From Crenarchaeota archaeon 13_1_40CM_3_52_17 (GTDB taxonomy: Archaea; Thermoproteota; Bathyarchaeia; 40CM-2-53-6), in contig MNGN01000022.1 in NCBI GenBank assembly GCA_001918745.1, positions 1 to 41,008 on the forward strand: a stretch of DNA of 41,008 nt. Reading direction: 5' to 3'. A program made the translations under genes and the position numbers. The notes under the pieces were generated by a model, which saw nothing but the letters and a program-made list of their open reading frames with translations, did not search any database and was not told the DNA's origin. This document shows, in pieces, positions 3,229 through 39,835 of this stretch; position 1 is the first letter of the stretch; each line of letters starts with the position of its first letter.

Positions 3229-4791
3229 CTGCAGGTCTCCAAGCCACTCGGTATTGAGGCAAGAGAATATCAGACTTCTATTGCAGAGTCAGCCGCCAAG
3301 GCAAACACACTCGTGGTTCTACCAACTGGGCTAGGCAAGACCATAGTCGCTCTGCTGGTAGCGGTCAAGCGCCTTTCGCAATATCAAGACGACAAGGTCG
3401 TCATCCTTGCCCCTACAAAACCGCTGGTTCTCCAGCATGCCGAGTTTTTCAGAGAACACTTTCCCGACAAGAGTGTTAGATCATCAGTCCTGACGGGACA
3501 AACCCCTCCAGCTACGAGAGTCAATGATTTCGATGGATCTCAGTTGATTTTTGCCACTCCTGAAGTGATTAGAAACGACGTCTCGAGCGAACGGTATACC
3601 CTAACCCCCGTCTGCTTGATCGTCTTTGACGAGGCTCATCGGTGCGTCCGAGACTATGCTTACTCTGAGGTCGCTGAGAACTACAAAAGACAGGCATCGA
3701 ACCCTCTGATACTTGGGTTAACTGCGTCGCCGAGCGCTCGAAAAGAGCGAGTTCAAGAGATCTGCGACAAGCTCGCGATCACCAACGTTGAGATGCGAAC
3801 CGAGGAGGACGAGGACGTTGTTCAGTATGTCAATGACGTGGCGATAAATTGGGAACGGGTCCCACTTCCCTCAGCTTACAAGGAGATTAGCAAGATTCTT
3901 CGAGCCGCGATGGAGGAGAGGACGGAGAAGCTCAGGGCAATGCACCAGTTGCCGTCCGGTGTTCGCGCAAACAAGCGGATGCTACTTGAGCTTGGAGAGA
4001 AGTTGCGAAAGAGTCTGAGGAGAGGAGGGTCCGGGGCTTTGTATGGGGCAGTCATCCTTCAGGCACAGGCGATGTCGTTGAGTCATGCAATCGACGTGCT
4101 CGAGACACAGGGTTTGCACAATCTAACAAGATACCTTGCAAAGCTAGAGACTGCAAGTAGCAAGTCCGGCAAGAGTCTCTCAAGAGATCCTAGGATTCTA
4201 GAGGCTAGGAAGCTGGCATTCTCGATGGAAGAGAGAGAGCACCCCAAGCAGAAGAGGCTTCGAGAGCTTGTCGAGGGGGAGATGAAGTTGAACAAGGATT
4301 CGAAAATCATAGTCTTCACCCAGTACAGAGATACTGTCGAGACACTTGTTGAGAGACTGAACAAGCTCCAGGGCGTCTCCGCCGTCCGCTTTGTAGGTCA
4401 GGCGACTCGGGACGCGGATGACGTTGGCCTAAGCCAGGGTGAGCAGATGGGTATCCTAGAGGATTTTCGACAAGGGCGCAGCAACTTGCTCGTGACAACT
4501 AGCATCGGTGAAGAGGGACTGCACGTTCCAGACGTTGACCATGTGATCTTCTATGAAGCCGTTCCATCCGAGATCCGCCTCATCCAGCGTAGAGGGCGTA
4601 CTGGTAGGACGAGGCAGGGAAAAATGACAGTACTCATGTCAGAAGGAACGATCGACGAGGCATACTACTGGACAAGCCAGAAGAGAGAGCAACAGATGCA
4701 CCGTTTCCTCCAGACCGTGAGGAAGAAAGGAGCGAAGCCTCCATCGAAGACGAAGAGTACCCTAGATGACTGGTCCAGTTCCCAAAAATAA
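3229..4791 (+). CDS. Hef/FANCM-type DEAH helicase (no nuclease domain)
   Basis: This is a superfamily 2 helicase of the Hef/Mph1/FANCM group, which remodels stalled forks and branched DNA. Motifs in order: Q-like 'IEAREYQ' upstream of 3313, Walker A 'LPTGLGKT', 'VFDEAHR', motif III 'GLTASPS', an inserted helical thumb-like region typical of the group, then 'IIVFTQYRDT', 'TSIGEEGLHVPDVD' and 'QRRGRTGR'. The protein ends soon after, so the XPF-like nuclease and HhH domains of euryarchaeal Hef are absent. The first standard start in frame is GTG 3313, but that would drop the Q motif. The open frame runs back to a stop at 3205-3207 with no ATG, GTG or TTG; CTG at 3229 would put the start where the family begins. 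The call is firm; the start is not. Confidence 0.88.
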   Translation: MQVSKPLGIEAREYQTSIAESAAKANTLVVLPTGLGKTIVALLVAVKRLSQYQDDKVVILAPTKPLVLQHAEFFREHFPDKSVRSSVLTGQTPPATRVNDFDGSQLIFATPEVIRNDVSSERYTLTPVCLIVFDEAHRCVRDYAYSEVAENYKRQASNPLILGLTASPSARKERVQEICDKLAITNVEMRTEEDEDVVQYVNDVAINWERVPLPSAYKEISKILRAAMEERTEKLRAMHQLPSGVRANKRMLLELGEKLRKSLRRGGSGALYGAVILQAQAMSLSHAIDVLETQGLHNLTRYLAKLETASSKSGKSLSRDPRILEARKLAFSMEEREHPKQKRLRELVEGEMKLNKDSKIIVFTQYRDTVETLVERLNKLQGVSAVRFVGQATRDADDVGLSQGEQMGILEDFRQGRSNLLVTTSIGEEGLHVPDVDHVIFYEAVPSEIRLIQRRGRTGRTRQGKMTVLMSEGTIDEAYYWTSQKREQQMHRFLQTVRKKGAKPPSKTKSTLDDWSSSQK

Positions 4792-27763: not shown

Positions 27764-27867
27764 GGGCAACCGGAACGATCATTTCGACAATCTTCTCCAA
27801 CTTCGTGCTGACGTGATCCTCTAGCATATTGGTTGATGGTGGGGCCGGTGGGATTTGAACCCACGAC

Positions 27868-27890
27868 CTCTGGCCCCGATTTCTCGGGGT
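27868..27890 (-). other. tRNA-Pro intron 3 (variable loop, 45/46)
   Basis: 23 nt. The central helix CTGG/CCAG is perfect, the inner helix is CCCCGA/TCGGGG capped by a GAAA tetraloop, and the bulges are CG^A and AG^G. Splicing leaves a normal 5-nt variable loop CGGTC. Confidence 0.88.
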
Positions 27891-27905
27891 CGCCAGCGCC
27901 CCAGG

Positions 27906-27926
27906 TTTACCGTCCAAGATTGGACT
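27906..27926 (-). other. tRNA-Pro intron 2 (anticodon stem, 30/31)
   Basis: 21 nt. The central helix TACC/GGTA is perfect, the inner helix is GTCC/GGAC with a 6-nt loop, and the 3-nt bulges are cut as AG^A and AA^C. Splicing rebuilds the 5-bp anticodon stem CCAGC/GCTGG. Confidence 0.88.
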
Positions 27927-27936
27927 CTGGTATCCT

Positions 27937-27956
27937 CTGGGCGGGGTCAATCCCCT
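27937..27956 (-). other. tRNA-Pro intron 1 (D loop)
   Basis: 20 nt. The 5' bulge CA^A and the 3' bulge AG^A flank an inner helix GGGG/CCCC with loop ATTGA. The central helix TGGT/GCCC has three of four pairs (one G-U), so this is a relaxed bulge-helix-bulge. Splicing gives 'GGTCAAGGAT', the normal D-arm end of tRNA-Pro. Confidence 0.75.
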
Positions 27957-28066
27957 TGACCAAGCTAGACGACGGCCCCTGAGTTCGGAATCTGAATCGG
28001 GCTGCTTTTCTGTGTTATGCTCAGGGCTCGTCAGACAGTCGACTATTAGTGGTACGGAGAAAGGAT

Positions 28067-34469: not shown

Positions 34470-35084
34470 ATGGTTTTATGGAGCTCACATTTGCTTGGTA
34501 ATTCCCCGGGGGCGAGTGAACTGGAAAAGGAACCGTCTATCGTAGAGATTGTCGACACTGAACTCGAAAACTCGCCTTCACGAATTACTCTCCTTCGCGA
34601 GTTTCCCGAGACCCGGATCGGGGATAGGACCTTAGGCCCATACCGAATGGGACAAGAAGTCGATCTCTCGCTCTGGATCGCTCAGCATTTAGTCGAAATG
34701 GGCTATGCTCGGTTCAAGGATGAAGAACAGCTCACTCTGAACGCTCTGTCAACTACACATTATAGACAGACCCTGCCTGCCTCAAATCAGATTCCGGAAC
34801 TGCCTCGGTCATTCTACTTCCAACTTCGTCGGCTCATCAGGGGTCTCAAGAGCCTTGAAGTGAAAGACCGTACGAAAGCACGGGAGCTAGACAAGGCACT
34901 AGCCTTGGCATGGGACATTGTCAACTTGCGAGTGAAGAAGATCGCCTCCCTGGGGGCTTCTGGAGGGCAAACTACCGAGGTAACGTCCAAACTTACACTT
35001 GAGGAGAAGGCTCTGTTCGAGAAGGTTCGTCAGAACGTGGAATCTTGGAAGAAGGACATTCTTGGCAGTGAAACTACCAATTGA
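34470..35084 (+). CDS. archaeal GINS subunit (Gins23-like)
   Basis: GINS links MCM with Cdc45/RecJ in the archaeal CMG-like helicase. The 204-residue protein has an N-terminal small domain with 'LGPYRMGQEVDLSLWIAQHL' (B-like, about 53-75) followed by a long helical A-like domain ('PRSFYFQLRRLIRGLKSLEV', 'DKALALAWDIVNLRVKKIAS'). B before A is the order of Psf2/Psf3 and archaeal Gins23, which is also adjacent to mcm in Sulfolobus. Divergence of the family makes the subtype tentative. ATG start; its TGA overlaps the mcm TTG by 4 bases. Confidence 0.78.
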   Translation: MVLWSSHLLGNSPGASELEKEPSIVEIVDTELENSPSRITLLREFPETRIGDRTLGPYRMGQEVDLSLWIAQHLVEMGYARFKDEEQLTLNALSTTHYRQTLPASNQIPELPRSFYFQLRRLIRGLKSLEVKDRTKARELDKALALAWDIVNLRVKKIASLGASGGQTTEVTSKLTLEEKALFEKVRQNVESWKKDILGSETTN

Positions 35085-38000
35085 CTTTGCTCGCACCGAC
35101 GGAGACCGCTCTTCCAGAGAACGCTTTCCAGGACTTCTTCCGCTCGTACCAAGCTGACCCAGTCGGGTCCAAATATAGAAAACGTCTCGCAGAGGTGGCA
35201 GTCAACAATGGGCGGTCCCTCGTAATCGATTTCGACGACCTAATCGCATTCGACCCAGTGCTTGCACGGAATGTCGTGCAACACCCGGATGACTTCTTTG
35301 TTTACGCTAGCTCCGCGGCGACCTCTCAGATGCGTGTTGAGGATCCCGAGTACGCTGAACAGGTCGGTCGTATCATTGTGCGATTTCGTCGCCTTCCAGA
35401 AAAAAGGGCTCTCCGAAAGATTGGAGCTGAGGACCTGATGAAACTCGCGTTAGTCGAAGGGATAGTTGTCCGAACGAGCCAAGTGCGACCCATGATTGTC
35501 AAAGCAGTATTTCGTTGTCGGAAATGTGGCGAACTCTCTCGTCAGGATCAAACAGGAGATCTGTTACGCGGGCCTGGCCCAATTTGTTCAAGTTGTAAGC
35601 AGCAGAGCGGCTGGGAGTTGCTAGAAGATCAGTGCGTGTTCAAGAATACTCAGGAAGCTCGCGTCCAAGAACGCCCGGAGGATCTTCCACCTGGAATGTT
35701 GCCTAGATATCTAGACGTCAGACTGGACGACGATCTCGTTGACACGGCGCGCCCCGGCGACAGAGTGGCAATGACTTCCGTGGTGAGAGCTGAGAAACAG
35801 TACGTCGGGGAGAAAGGGAAGCTTAGAACCTTCAACCTGTACTTAGAAGCGAATTTTGTAGATGTTGTCGGGAAAGAGACTGAAATTGTTGAGATTACCC
35901 TTGAAGACGAGAAGAAGATCATCGAAGCCTCGAAACACCCTTTCGTCCATCGAAACCTCATCATGAGCCTGGCACCATCAATCTACGGCTACGATGAGAT
36001 CAAAGAAGGAATACTGTACCTTCTATTTGCAGGAGTTGCAAAACGACTCCCTGACGGCGTTAACATTCGAGGTGACTTAAACTGCCTGATCGTAGGCGAT
36101 CCTGGGTGTCTTATTGGAGACGAGCGAGTTGTTCTGGGTGATGGGACAATCGCCAAGATTGAGGACCTTGGTGATCATCATCTTGAGGACCTGAATATTC
36201 CCGTTCTAACGGGCGGTGGGGAGGCGGAAAAAGACATCGCGACTCGATTCCACATTTACCATAATCAGCCAACGATGGAAATTGTCACAGAATCCGGAAA
36301 GAGCATCAGAGGCACCTACAATCATCCTCTGCTTTCGGTCGAGATTGTCGAGCGAACGCAGATTCGACGCTGGAAGAGATTGGACGAGTTCAGAGTAGGA
36401 GACAGAGTTGCAGTTGTCACCGGATTCCCTTGCTACATTACCGGGCTGGTCAACACTGGTTGGCATCCTCTACCTTATACATTAGGTCCAAAGTTCCGCG
36501 GCCGCCTCCCGACGAAGGTGACTCCCGAACTTGGCGCATTCATGGGTTACCTCCTGGGCGATGGTTGGGTCCAGCGATACCAAGCTGGATTTACCGTCGC
36601 AGATGGAGAGAAGGACGTCCTCAAGATGCTTTGCGCCATGTCAATCAAACTCTTTGGCATTAGCCCCAAGGTTAGTTCCAGAAAGGGGCCCAACCGCAAT
36701 GTCCAGCTCTTTGAGGGAGTAATTCACAGCCAGGACGTCGCGTACAACCTGGCCACCCTAAAAGAGAAGCGCATCCCAGATCTCATCCTGAAGTCGGGAG
36801 ACAGTGTCGTCTCACCATTCCTAAGATGGCTGTACGAAGCAGACGGAACAGTCTTCTCAAGTAAGAGAGGATGCGGAGCCATCGGTCTCAAAGCGAAAAA
36901 CATCGAGCTTCTGCGAGATGTCCAGATTCTTCTCTTACGATTCGGAATACACTCACGAATAATTTCAAATGCCCTTCTAATTAGAAGGGGTGAAAGCATT
37001 CTAGAATTTGCTGACAAGATTGGTTTCGCGTCGATCAAGAAACAGACTCGTCTGGCTGACTTGAGAGCGCGAGCTGCGAGGCTGAAGCGCTTTGGAAGGC
37101 AACACAGTGAACGCATTATATCCGTGTATCACCGAGAGCCCGCCGATGTGTATGACATCGAGGTTCCCCAGAGCCACAGGTTCGTCGCGAACGGAATAGT
37201 CTCTCACAATACGGCAAAGAGCCAGTTGTTGCAGTACGTTTCCAGAATTGCGCCCAGAGGCCTCTACACTTCGGGAAGAGGGACTACCGCTGCTGGACTC
37301 ACTGCAGCGGTCTTGCGCGAGAAAACGGGAGGAATGGTGCTTGAAGCAGGTGCTTTGGTCCTAGCCGACAAAGGAGTCGCTTGCCTTCACCCGGATAGCG
37401 AAGTCTTTGTGGATGGGGTTCAGAGGAGGGTGGCTGATCTGTTCGACGAGGGACGTATTGAACGGGCGCTATCGGGCAGCAATCGGTTGGAATTGTCCCC
37501 TTTGCATCGGTCCGTTGCGAATCTCGATCTTGACAGACTTGCTACGAGGCAGGCAACCGCGACTCTCGTCGCCCGCAGATGGTACAGTGGGCAGATTCTT
37601 CGGGTGAGCATGGAGTCTGGAATGGAACTTCGCCTGACGCCAACTCATCCAGTTCTCGACGGGAAGACATTACGGTGGAAGCCGATAGGTGACTTCAGGC
37701 CCGGGGAGAATATTGTCGCCCTCAAGAAGCTACCGTCCTCCCAGACTCGAGTCGTGCTTCTCGACACACTTCCGGATAACTGGATTATCCAACCTCTCTC
37801 CAGCGAGAAAATGGAGCTCCGCCGTGTTCTAGAGGCAAAGCATCACTCCTTGCGAGCAATCAACAGCTACTACGGATTGAGAAGAGATGCGCTCAATGGT
37901 CGCGGGGCCCTAACGGTTAGGCAATTCAAGGCAATTCTGAAAGACACGGGGATGTACAACGCCTGGGCACAGCGCCCGTTTGCTTTCGGAAGAAAGAAGC

Positions 38001-39835
38001 GCACAGAACGTCTAAAGATTGGCACACTAACAGCGGCACTTGCCTACATTCTGGGGTTTGCTTATGGAGACGGATACGCGCGATCTAGTGCCAAGCATTC
38101 GGCCTTGAGAATCACGCAATCATCAGTCCACGCCGATTATATCAGGCGACTTCAGAGGGCAATGCACCAAGTGTCACACCGCCCTTGGAGTACATATCTA
38201 CGCCCCGCCAAGACGACAAAGTTTGCCAAGAGTTCGGAATGCCAAGTTCTTGTCCGACATTCTAACCTCGTCGTGCACTTGTTCGAATGGTTGACGCGTA
38301 ACGGACTTCAAAACCTTCTTCGTCTCGATGATGCGGCACTCGCTGGATTCATAGCTGGGGCTGTCGATGCTGACGGATGCTTCAGTATCAAGAAGAATCG
38401 GCAATACTCCATGGTCTCCTTTGATCTTCTTCTGTCTAACGATCTTGCATCAAACCGCCGCTTGCTCTGGGCCCTCCGGCGCTTCGACGTGTACGCACGC
38501 ATCAAGAATCTTCAGGGCGTAATGAGCATACAGATTACCTCCAGGCGCGATGTCAGGCGGTTGATGGACCGAATAAGCCCTTATTCAGGGAAAGCGAAGA
38601 ACATTCCTCCCCAGCGAACCCGAATTTCAGCTCGACACGAGGCAGTTCCCGCGTTGCCTCTTCGCGTAGCACTCTCGGGCCTGCGGCCGGTCCCAACCGA
38701 GCTACTCCGCTCCGGCGATTGGAGTACATTCCATTCATACCGCAACGGAAAGCGACAACCATACAAGGCCCCTCTCCAGCGACTCATCCGCGGGCTCCAC
38801 CCCTGGTTGGACGCCTCCTCTCGAGAACGACTCCTCGCGCTCGCTGGGGACGATTATGCCCTCGAAGCAATCCGAACGGTCAATTCGGAGTTCTACACGG
38901 GCTACGTCTATGATCTTCGCGTTCCACTGGGGGAACACTTTGTCACCGAAGGCGTCCTCACTCACAACTGTATAGATGAACTGGACAAGATGAGGCCTGA
39001 TGATAGGGTCGCGATTCATGAGGCTCTGGAACAGCAAACCGTCAGCGTTGCTAAAGGAGGAATTGTGGCCACCCTGAACGCTAGAGCGGCAGTTCTTGCT
39101 GCTGCGAACCCTTCCCTAGGAAGGTATGAGCCACACAGAAACATCAACGAAAACATCAATCTTCCCGTAACTATACTTTCCAGATTTGACTTGATTTTTC
39201 TCGTTAAGGATCTACCCGACCCCGATAGCGATTCTCAAATGTCGTCGCATATTCTGCAACTGCACAGAGCACGACACGGTTCAGAAGAAGCGCCATTCCA
39301 ACCGGACTTTCTACGGAAATACATCAGCTTTGCCAAGAGGATAGTCCCAGTGCTGACTCCGGACGCCGTCAAGGAGCTGCAGGACTTTTACCTGAAAATG
39401 CGTGGGACCACCGGCCGAGAAGCGGCAGTGGCGATCACTCCTCGCCAATTAGAAGCCTTGGTCCGACTATCCGAGGCAAGAGCCCGAGCATTCCTTCGCG
39501 ATCAAGTGACAGTGGAGGATGCGAAGAGCGCCGTAAAAATCATGACGTACGCGTTGCTAGACGTAGGAGTGGACGTAAAAACCGGCAAGATCGATATCGA
39601 CACGATAATGACAGGTAGGCCCGCGACAGTGCGGGACACGCTAGGTCGGGTAATCGACATCGTACGGGAGCTTGAACGGGAAACCGGAGATGTTGATGAG
39701 AAAATCCTGATTGCTGCCATAGTGGACAAGGACAAAGTGACGGATGGGGAAGCTCGGCGGTTCGTCGGGCAGTTGATAAAAGAGGGAATGCTTTACTCCC
39801 CCAAGGAAGGACGCCTGAAGCGCACAGCGGGCTAG
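35081..39835 (+). CDS. mcm: MCM replicative helicase with two inteins
   Basis: The 1584-residue precursor contains a 687-residue MCM, the hexameric helicase that unwinds DNA at forks. The N-terminal domain has a zinc ribbon (Cys-x2-Cys 'CRKCG' and 'CSSCK'). Walker A is split: 'LIVGDPG' at 336-342 and 'TAKSQLL' from 711, with an intein between. Walker B is split: 'LADKGVA' to 767 and 'CIDELDKM' from 1297, again with an intein between. The Arg finger 'SRFDLIFLV' and a C-terminal winged helix follow. Both inteins must leave before the enzyme can bind or hydrolyse ATP. Start TTG 35081 overlaps the GINS stop. Hel308 follows 26 bases later. Confidence 0.96.
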   Translation: MTLLAPTETALPENAFQDFFRSYQADPVGSKYRKRLAEVAVNNGRSLVIDFDDLIAFDPVLARNVVQHPDDFFVYASSAATSQMRVEDPEYAEQVGRIIVRFRRLPEKRALRKIGAEDLMKLALVEGIVVRTSQVRPMIVKAVFRCRKCGELSRQDQTGDLLRGPGPICSSCKQQSGWELLEDQCVFKNTQEARVQERPEDLPPGMLPRYLDVRLDDDLVDTARPGDRVAMTSVVRAEKQYVGEKGKLRTFNLYLEANFVDVVGKETEIVEITLEDEKKIIEASKHPFVHRNLIMSLAPSIYGYDEIKEGILYLLFAGVAKRLPDGVNIRGDLNCLIVGDPGCLIGDERVVLGDGTIAKIEDLGDHHLEDLNIPVLTGGGEAEKDIATRFHIYHNQPTMEIVTESGKSIRGTYNHPLLSVEIVERTQIRRWKRLDEFRVGDRVAVVTGFPCYITGLVNTGWHPLPYTLGPKFRGRLPTKVTPELGAFMGYLLGDGWVQRYQAGFTVADGEKDVLKMLCAMSIKLFGISPKVSSRKGPNRNVQLFEGVIHSQDVAYNLATLKEKRIPDLILKSGDSVVSPFLRWLYEADGTVFSSKRGCGAIGLKAKNIELLRDVQILLLRFGIHSRIISNALLIRRGESILEFADKIGFASIKKQTRLADLRARAARLKRFGRQHSERIISVYHREPADVYDIEVPQSHRFVANGIVSHNTAKSQLLQYVSRIAPRGLYTSGRGTTAAGLTAAVLREKTGGMVLEAGALVLADKGVACLHPDSEVFVDGVQRRVADLFDEGRIERALSGSNRLELSPLHRSVANLDLDRLATRQATATLVARRWYSGQILRVSMESGMELRLTPTHPVLDGKTLRWKPIGDFRPGENIVALKKLPSSQTRVVLLDTLPDNWIIQPLSSEKMELRRVLEAKHHSLRAINSYYGLRRDALNGRGALTVRQFKAILKDTGMYNAWAQRPFAFGRKKRTERLKIGTLTAALAYILGFAYGDGYARSSAKHSALRITQSSVHADYIRRLQRAMHQVSHRPWSTYLRPAKTTKFAKSSECQVLVRHSNLVVHLFEWLTRNGLQNLLRLDDAALAGFIAGAVDADGCFSIKKNRQYSMVSFDLLLSNDLASNRRLLWALRRFDVYARIKNLQGVMSIQITSRRDVRRLMDRISPYSGKAKNIPPQRTRISARHEAVPALPLRVALSGLRPVPTELLRSGDWSTFHSYRNGKRQPYKAPLQRLIRGLHPWLDASSRERLLALAGDDYALEAIRTVNSEFYTGYVYDLRVPLGEHFVTEGVLTHNCIDELDKMRPDDRVAIHEALEQQTVSVAKGGIVATLNARAAVLAAANPSLGRYEPHRNINENINLPVTILSRFDLIFLVKDLPDPDSDSQMSSHILQLHRARHGSEEAPFQPDFLRKYISFAKRIVPVLTPDAVKELQDFYLKMRGTTGREAAVAITPRQLEALVRLSEARARAFLRDQVTVEDAKSAVKIMTYALLDVGVDVKTGKIDIDTIMTGRPATVRDTLGRVIDIVRELERETGDVDEKILIAAIVDKDKVTDGEARRFVGQLIKEGMLYSPKEGRLKRTAG
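36107..37210 (+). mobile_element. intein 1 in MCM Walker A, LAGLIDADG type
   Basis: This spans 368 residues (343-710) from Cys1 'CLIGDERVVLGDG' to 'VANGIVSHN', with Thr as the +1 extein residue. Splicing block B is 'GTYNHPLL' and block F is 'DVYDIEVPQSHRFVANG'; the penultimate His and terminal Asn are present, so splicing looks intact. A homing endonuclease domain has two LAGLIDADG-like helices, 'LGAFMGYLLGDGW' and 'LRWLYEADGTV', with acidic residues kept. It sits between GDPG and TAKS of the P-loop. Confidence 0.93.
37382..38968 (+). mobile_element. intein 2 in MCM Walker B, LAGLIDADG type
   Basis: This spans 529 residues (768-1296) from Cys1 'CLHPDSEVFVDG' to 'TEGVLTHN', with Cys as the +1 extein residue. 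Block B is 'LRLTPTHPVLD' and block F is 'GYVYDLRVPLGEHFVTEG'. The endonuclease helices 'ALAYILGFAYGDGYA' and 'LAGFIAGAVDADGCF' retain the acidic residues. It is larger than intein 1, with an extra basic region between block B and the first endonuclease helix that could be a DNA-recognition part. It splits A|CIDELD of Walker B. Confidence 0.93.

What the first reader, a model, noticed from the sequence alone, without database searches (positions are those of the whole stretch)
27837..27979. tRNA-Pro(GGG) split by three short noncanonical introns
Seen: perfect acceptor and T arms and an encoded CCA, but 143 bases between the ends. Removing 20, 21 and 23 nt at bulge-helix-bulge positions gives an exact 76-nt tRNA-Pro with anticodon GGG. 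Two of the three sites have perfect 4-bp central helices (TACC/GGTA, CTGG/CCAG) and cuts after the second base of 3-nt bulges; the D-loop site is relaxed. Introns in the D loop, at 30/31 and at 45/46, all in one gene and none at 37/38, are known mainly from Thermoproteales. Such a gene would be missed or miscalled by a standard scan.
Basis: partly seen in the sequence, partly recalled or inferred. Interest (0 to 1): 0.85.

Follow-up and report, generated by a model that had tools for sequence, protein, structure and literature searches.

The report
tRNA-Pro(GGG) gene with three introns
A proline tRNA gene of an uncultured archaeon appears to be cut by three tiny introns that must be spliced out before the tRNA can work; the same layout is shared by its close relatives, in a lineage whose tRNA genes look unusually full of introns, including sister genes that read with four.

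Summary
Confirmed. On the minus strand, window 27979-27837 is a tRNA-Pro(GGG) gene interrupted in the D loop (about 20 nt), at 30/31 (21 nt) and at 45/46 (23 nt). A search not told the junctions found the same cuts; 0 of 500 shuffles scored as high. The organism is a Bathyarchaeia MAG, not a Thermoproteales. The same three introns are in 15 of the 18 genus genomes held, window's included. G020, without the 45/46 intron, is a natural empty site, and eight class-level homologues lack all three. The genome encodes a two-subunit endonuclease with the broad-specificity loop. No other tRNA-Pro(GGG) was found, in an 80% complete genome. The kind is known; my paper searches found no report for this clade. 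The surprise lies around it: my script counts about 1.8 introns per accepted tRNA gene here and 2.0 in G018, against 0.45 in class relative G042, and two four-intron genes in G018, where passages I read in four papers name at most three. No RNA data were available; splicing is inferred.

The parts
27837..27979 (-). pre-tRNA-Pro(GGG) gene, with encoded CCA at 27837-27839
27957..27979 (-). exon 1 (position 1 to D loop); its end at the D-loop junction is uncertain by 1-2 nt
27937..27956 (-). intron 1, D loop, about 20 nt (one of three equivalent registers; 19 or 22 nt not excluded); inner helix GGGG/CCCC, relaxed central helix TTGG/CCCA with one mismatch
27927..27936 (-). exon 2 (end of D loop to position 30)
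27906..27926 (-). intron 2, position 30/31, 21 nt; BHB with central helix TACC/GGTA and inner helix GTCCA/TGGAC
27891..27905 (-). exon 3 (31-45), holding the anticodon loop; anticodon GGG at 27900-27902
27868..27890 (-). intron 3, position 45/46, 23 nt; BHB with central helix CTGG/CCAG and inner helix CCCCGA/TCGGGG
   Evidence: naturally absent in the orthologue of G020 (L121)
27837..27867 (-). exon 4 (46-73, T arm, 3' acceptor strand, CCA)

Best explanation
It is the cell's gene for tRNA-Pro(GGG), transcribed from the minus strand as a precursor that holds three short introns. Two form textbook bulge-helix-bulge motifs and one a relaxed version. An (alpha-beta)2 splicing endonuclease with the crenarchaeal-type loop cuts them out and an RtcB-type ligase joins the four exons, giving a 76-nt tRNA plus CCA. 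In both textbook sites the exon strand of the central helix lies in or beside the anticodon stem (T25-C28 for intron 2, C40-G43 for intron 3), so these motifs and the mature anticodon stem exclude each other. Shown: sequence, motif, conservation, presence of the endonuclease genes. Inferred: transcription, subunit assembly, cleavage, ligation and any order of events.
For: A parse not told the junctions gives the same result; 0 of 500 shuffles reach it. Same gene with the same three introns at 17 loci in 15 of 18 genus genomes, 5-7 kb from the RFC small-subunit gene in G016 and G018 as in the window. In 11 distinct orthologue sequences exons hardly vary while introns vary in length and sequence yet keep 98.8% of 243 helix cells paired (0 of 500 shuffles as high; slid versions 32-53%). 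G020 has no 45/46 intron, and its exons meet where the cut is predicted. Eight class-level Pro(GGG) genes have no intron (6) or one at 37/38 (2). Alpha subunit with Tyr/His/Lys triad and a Lys aligned to A. pernix K44; beta without Tyr and His. RtcB fragment near a contig end.
Against: No RNA reads. Energy folding does not give the cloverleaf even for the spliced sequence and does not form the D-loop motif at any stage, so it neither supports the D-loop site nor predicts an order. The D-loop central helix has a T-C mismatch in all 11 orthologues. Covariation is slight: 2 of 23 pairs change on both sides, a count that 23 of 500 shuffles reach. RtcB was seen only as 59 of 426 profile positions.
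Confidence: 0.95

Rival explanations
1. A decayed or insertion-broken tRNA-Pro pseudogene; the working copy lies in the missing part of the MAG.
For: The MAG is 80% complete in 66 contigs, so absence of a second copy is not proven.
Against: Exons hardly vary across 15 genus genomes and each Pro(GGG) locus sorted there carries the disrupted form (17 of 17); helices of the introns are kept. In the five genus genomes over 90% complete (G005, G013, G015, G016, G017) the places with this T arm and acceptor are the three-intron Pro gene or Trp; a copy with another T arm would not have been seen.
Confidence: 0.03
2. A tmRNA or other small RNA with a tRNA-like end, as the best Rfam hit below threshold suggests.
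For: Rfam tmRNA 30.8 bits, E 7.9e-11 in a 421-base search.
Against: Below its gathering score of 47; it is the acceptor and T arm that align; the rest parses as D and anticodon arms; intronless class homologues are plain tRNA-Pro.
Confidence: 0.005
3. Right gene, but two true introns; the D loop is simply enlarged, or the D-loop insert is removed at other bases.
For: The D-loop motif is relaxed, its register is free and folding does not form it.
Against: The intronless class homologues have D loops of 10 or 11 nt, and a loop of about 31 nt would be far from any tRNA that I know of (recall); the insert varies in loop length around a kept G/C stem.
Confidence: 0.04

Closest known systems
Multi-intron tRNA genes of Thermoproteales, e.g. 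tRNA-Pro(UGG) of Pyrobaculum islandicum with introns at 25/26, 37/38 and 56/57 (PMC4090602, passages read)
   Same: Three short introns in one gene; the review lists 30/31 and 45/46 among archaeal noncanonical positions and ties such genes to alpha2-beta2 endonucleases
   Different: Another archaeal class (Bathyarchaeia); another isoacceptor; no intron at 37/38; family members that read with four introns in one gene
tRNA-Thr(GGU) of Caldiarchaeum subterraneum with one or two introns, one form with a single intron at 45/46 (PMC3293823, abstract and passages read)
   Same: 45/46 intron; intron number differs between close relatives
   Different: Three of 45 tRNA genes hold multiple introns there; here 16 of 25 accepted genes
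Noncanonical tRNA introns of Thaumarchaeota, given their own model in tRNAscan-SE 2.0 (PMC8450103, section 26 and passages read)
   Same: Noncanonical BHB introns outside Thermoproteales
   Different: 107 noncanonical introns over all Thaumarchaeota genomes of that survey; here 46 introns, 34 of them not at 37/38, in 25 accepted genes of one MAG (my script)

Membership tests
Archaeal intron-containing tRNA gene (BHB-spliced) | Exons join to a full cloverleaf with invariant bases and a sensible anticodon | tested here: met
Archaeal intron-containing tRNA gene (BHB-spliced) | Junctions lie in a 3-nt bulge, 4-bp helix, 3-nt bulge motif (sites 30/31 and 45/46) | tested here: met
Archaeal intron-containing tRNA gene (BHB-spliced) | Same motif at the D-loop site | tested here: inconclusive
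   relaxed form only, 3 of 4 central pairs, register free
Archaeal intron-containing tRNA gene (BHB-spliced) | Genes for a splicing endonuclease of the type that cuts relaxed and noncanonical sites: two subunits, loop lysine | tested here: met
   two subunit genes; triad in alpha, Tyr and His missing in beta; Lys aligned to K44; assembly and activity not tested
Archaeal intron-containing tRNA gene (BHB-spliced) | Mature spliced tRNA and circular introns in RNA | not testable with these tools
   no reads available
Multi-intron tRNA (three introns) | Three introns are the optimum of the parse | tested here: met
   score 41.0, 49.0, 59.6 for at most 1, 2, 3 introns and no higher for 4 or 5
Thermoproteales lineage | Organism is a Thermoproteales | tested here: not met
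   RFC small subunit 95-97% identical to Candidatus Bathyarchaeota MAGs
tmRNA | tmRNA model at or above gathering score | tested here: not met
   30.8 of 47 bits

The most novel reading that the evidence does not exclude
One family of Bathyarchaeia has undergone a tRNA-intron burst of its own, denser than the published record that I read (about 1.8-2.0 introns per accepted gene by my script, against 71 in 46 genes for Pyrobaculum calidifontis) and passing the stated maximum of three to reach four introns in one gene (Pro(GGG) and Asn(GTT) of G018). The loop-bearing endonuclease is also present in a class relative with few introns, so the enzyme permits the burst but did not by itself trigger it.
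Probability: 0.65. Interest if true: 0.72.

Novelty: new member of a known kind. Interest (0 to 1): 0.62.

Why it matters
The reviews I read place multi-intron tRNA genes chiefly in Thermoproteales and link them to a broad-specificity endonuclease. Here a separate archaeal class shows one genus with a fixed three-intron tRNA-Pro, two sister genera that differ by single introns at 7/8 and 45/46, and class outgroups with none of these. That offers placed gains and losses, natural empty sites and a test of what drives the burst, since the endonuclease loop is shared with a low-intron relative. It also means that ordinary scans can leave the tRNA annotation of such MAGs badly incomplete.

Tried and rejected
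tmRNA reading rejected, see rivals. Order of splicing from base-pair probabilities: dropped, because the same method fails to fold the finished tRNA into a cloverleaf. Second tRNA-Pro(GGG) in the genome: the other hit with the same T arm and acceptor (C52, L100/L125) reads as tRNA-Trp(CCA) by eye; the parsers did not resolve it. L029 was labelled Pro(GGG) at score 45.0 by one parser version but Met(CAT) by the other, under the acceptance level, and is set aside. A four-intron reading of the window genome's Asp gene (L027) is not claimed: other runs gave two introns at nearly the same score. Placing G020 on a tree to order the 7/8 and 45/46 events: its RFC small-subunit gene was not found, so gain and loss stay open. 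Pro(GGG) of other families of the same order was not found by pattern or in the listed BLAST hits that I parsed (the BLAST list was cut); their Pro(TGG) reads with one 37/38 intron (6 loci) and one Pro(CGG) with none. Whether this lineage is mesophilic was not tested; some record titles carry depths in cm, and that they are soils is recalled.

Limits of the intron census: own script, not validated against tRNAscan-SE; loci came from Rfam tRNA hits (E up to 10 for the window genome and G018, up to 1 for G042) plus, for the window genome, a T-arm pattern; genes accepted at score 52 and cloverleaf 50. Left out: 8 of 33 T-arm candidates in the window genome, 14 of 40 in G018, 4 of 35 in G042; loci without any candidate (such as L013, L124 and L126) are in none of these counts. 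The window count of 46 includes 4 for the doubtful Asp gene; without it 42 in 24. The covariation and shuffle scores use my own scoring.

Full report
What was checked. The sequence at 27837-27979 reads, on the minus strand, GGGGCCG ... CGGCCCC A CCA with a perfect T arm. ARAGORN as run here finds no tRNA in the window and Rfam nothing at gathering scores. Under loose thresholds the tRNA model gives a short stretch (27840-27900, 17.7 bits) and Rfam a tmRNA (30.8 of 47 bits).

Parse. I wrote a search that removes up to four stretches, each only if it sits in a bulge-helix-bulge-like motif, and scores the remainder as a cloverleaf. Best result: 23 nt at 45/46, 21 nt at 30/31, 19 nt in the D loop, with 20 and 22 nt in the D loop 0.3 and 1.7 score units lower; mature form 77, 76 or 74 nt without CCA, anticodon GGG. 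0 of 500 dinucleotide shuffles of the interior reach the score. Allowing at most 1, 2, 3, 4 or 5 introns gives 41.0, 49.0, 59.6, 59.6, 59.6.

Which organism. The RFC small-subunit gene of the window is 95-97% identical to records titled Candidatus Bathyarchaeota archaeon BA_24, BA_3, BA_25, BA_22, BA_21 and BA_9 and Crenarchaeota archaeon 13_1_40CM_3_52_10. The window is contig C6 of a 1.78-Mb MAG, 80% complete, 66 contigs.

Relatives. A pattern for the T arm plus acceptor hit 28 of 101 genomes; 19 further places without a locus were fetched. Sorting the hits of the family by exon motif: Pro(GGG) with the same three introns at 17 loci in 15 of 18 genus genomes (G002 and G008 had no pattern hit, G011 two Trp-like hits, and one hit of G010, L107, is neither). 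G020, a further genus, has 7/8, D loop and 30/31 but none at 45/46, and C instead of T before the anticodon. G019 showed only a tRNA 3' fragment. Of eight Pro(GGG) genes read from other families of the class, six have no intron (L090, L091, L094, L095, L096; L254) and two have one at 37/38 (L097, L098). So the three noncanonical introns are absent from these outgroups, and 7/8 and 45/46 come and go inside the family.

Structure kept under change. In 11 distinct orthologue sequences the 23 pairs of the inner and central helices are kept in 98.8% of 243 cells; 0 of 500 shuffles reach this or the covariation score; slid versions give 32-53%. Two pairs show changes on both sides, a count that 23 of 500 shuffles reach, so the covariation is slight. 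Central-helix strands on the exon side cannot vary freely.

Machinery. Two proteins of PF01974. The alpha subunit (L101) matches best 3p1z, E 1.3e-42, which PMC6379350 lists as Aeropyrum pernix EndA; the alignment sets its GIPKPKP loop on that enzyme's loop, with K44 and R46 matched by Lys42 and Lys44 (my count). PMC6379350 and PMC12397907 (passages read) tie the loop lysine to cutting of relaxed motifs. Tyr126, His134 and Lys165 form the triad; the beta subunit has Phe and Gln at the first two and lacks the loop. The loop is also in the alpha subunits of G005, G018, G022 and G042; in G024 one subunit gene was found and my filter did not print it. G042 has few tRNA introns, so the loop alone does not account for the burst. 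RtcB: 59 of 426 profile positions near the end of contig C18.

Census. With one pipeline and one acceptance rule: window genome 46 introns in 25 accepted genes (1.84; 12 at 37/38; two genes intact), G018 52 in 26 (2.00; 12 at 37/38; two intact), G042 14 in 31 (0.45; 18 intact; at most two per gene). Candidates not accepted: 8, 14 and 4. One window gene (Asp) is doubtful; without it 42 in 24. Published figures: 71 introns in 46 genes of P. calidifontis, the most of the complete genomes assessed; 0.84 per gene over Thermoproteales; 0.21 overall (PMC8450103, section 26). The comparison sets my script against another method and drops the genes that failed to parse, so the excess over the record is a lead, not a result. 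A cruder sign agrees: hits over Rfam's cut-off are 14 of 34 in the window genome (E up to 10), 18 of 43 in G018 (E up to 10) and 18 of 36 in G005, against 24 of 32, 28 of 32 and 35 of 38 in G021, G024 and G042 (E up to 1).

Four introns. In G018 Pro(GGG) (L194) scores 48.9 with at most three introns and 60.9 with four; Asn(GTT) (L195) 49.7 and 62.6 (8/9, 30/31, 37/38, 50/51); neither improves with five; 0 of 200 shuffles each reach the score. Taking out the 7/8 insert leaves the same exon sequence there as in the genus genes that lack it. The 37/38 site of the Asn gene is weak (motif score 1.9). Passages in PMC8450103, PMC4033280, PMC3293823 and PMC3218864 name at most three introns. Searches for four-intron archaeal tRNA genes and for tRNA introns in Bathyarchaeota, Bathyarchaeia or archaeal MAGs listed no such report; of their hits I read passages of PMC7714728 and only the listing of the rest. 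The library holds open-licence papers only.

Mechanism. Intron 2 pairs its GGTA with T25-A26-C27-C28, intron 3 its CCAG with C40-T41-G42-G43. Both use strands that the mature anticodon stem needs, and the CCAG of intron 3 repeats exon bases 27-30. This follows from the sequence. That it enforces an order of events is my inference; energy folding could not test it.

Verdict. A well-supported three-intron tRNA-Pro(GGG) gene, new member of a known kind in a clade where my searches found no report of it, with relatives that are more remarkable than the gene itself.

Noticed in passing
G018, loci L194 and L195: Two tRNA genes (Pro GGG and Asn GTT) parse with four introns each.
   Followed up: yes
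L100/L125 (own contig C52, about 3424-3626) and relatives: tRNA-Trp(CCA) that by eye has a long 37/38 intron, a 45/46 intron and a D-arm intron whose place differs between genomes of one genus (25/26 in some, inside the D loop in others); the parsers did not resolve most of these genes.
   Followed up: partly
L089 (G019) 1497-1526 and L107 (G010): Isolated copies of a tRNA 3' end (T arm, acceptor, CCA) without a tRNA body that I could read; possibly attachment-site remnants of integrated elements. In L107 the part before the T arm resembles, by eye, a tRNA-Leu variable arm.
   Followed up: no
window 35081-39835 (+): MCM helicase ORF of 1584 aa with intein splicing and LAGLIDADG domains.
   Followed up: no
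L121 (G020): Pro(GGG) orthologue has C in place of T at position 33 before the anticodon; sequencing error or real is not known.
   Followed up: no
G042, locus L272: Endonuclease alpha subunit with the crenarchaeal-type loop in a Bathyarchaeia genome with few tRNA introns.
   Followed up: partly
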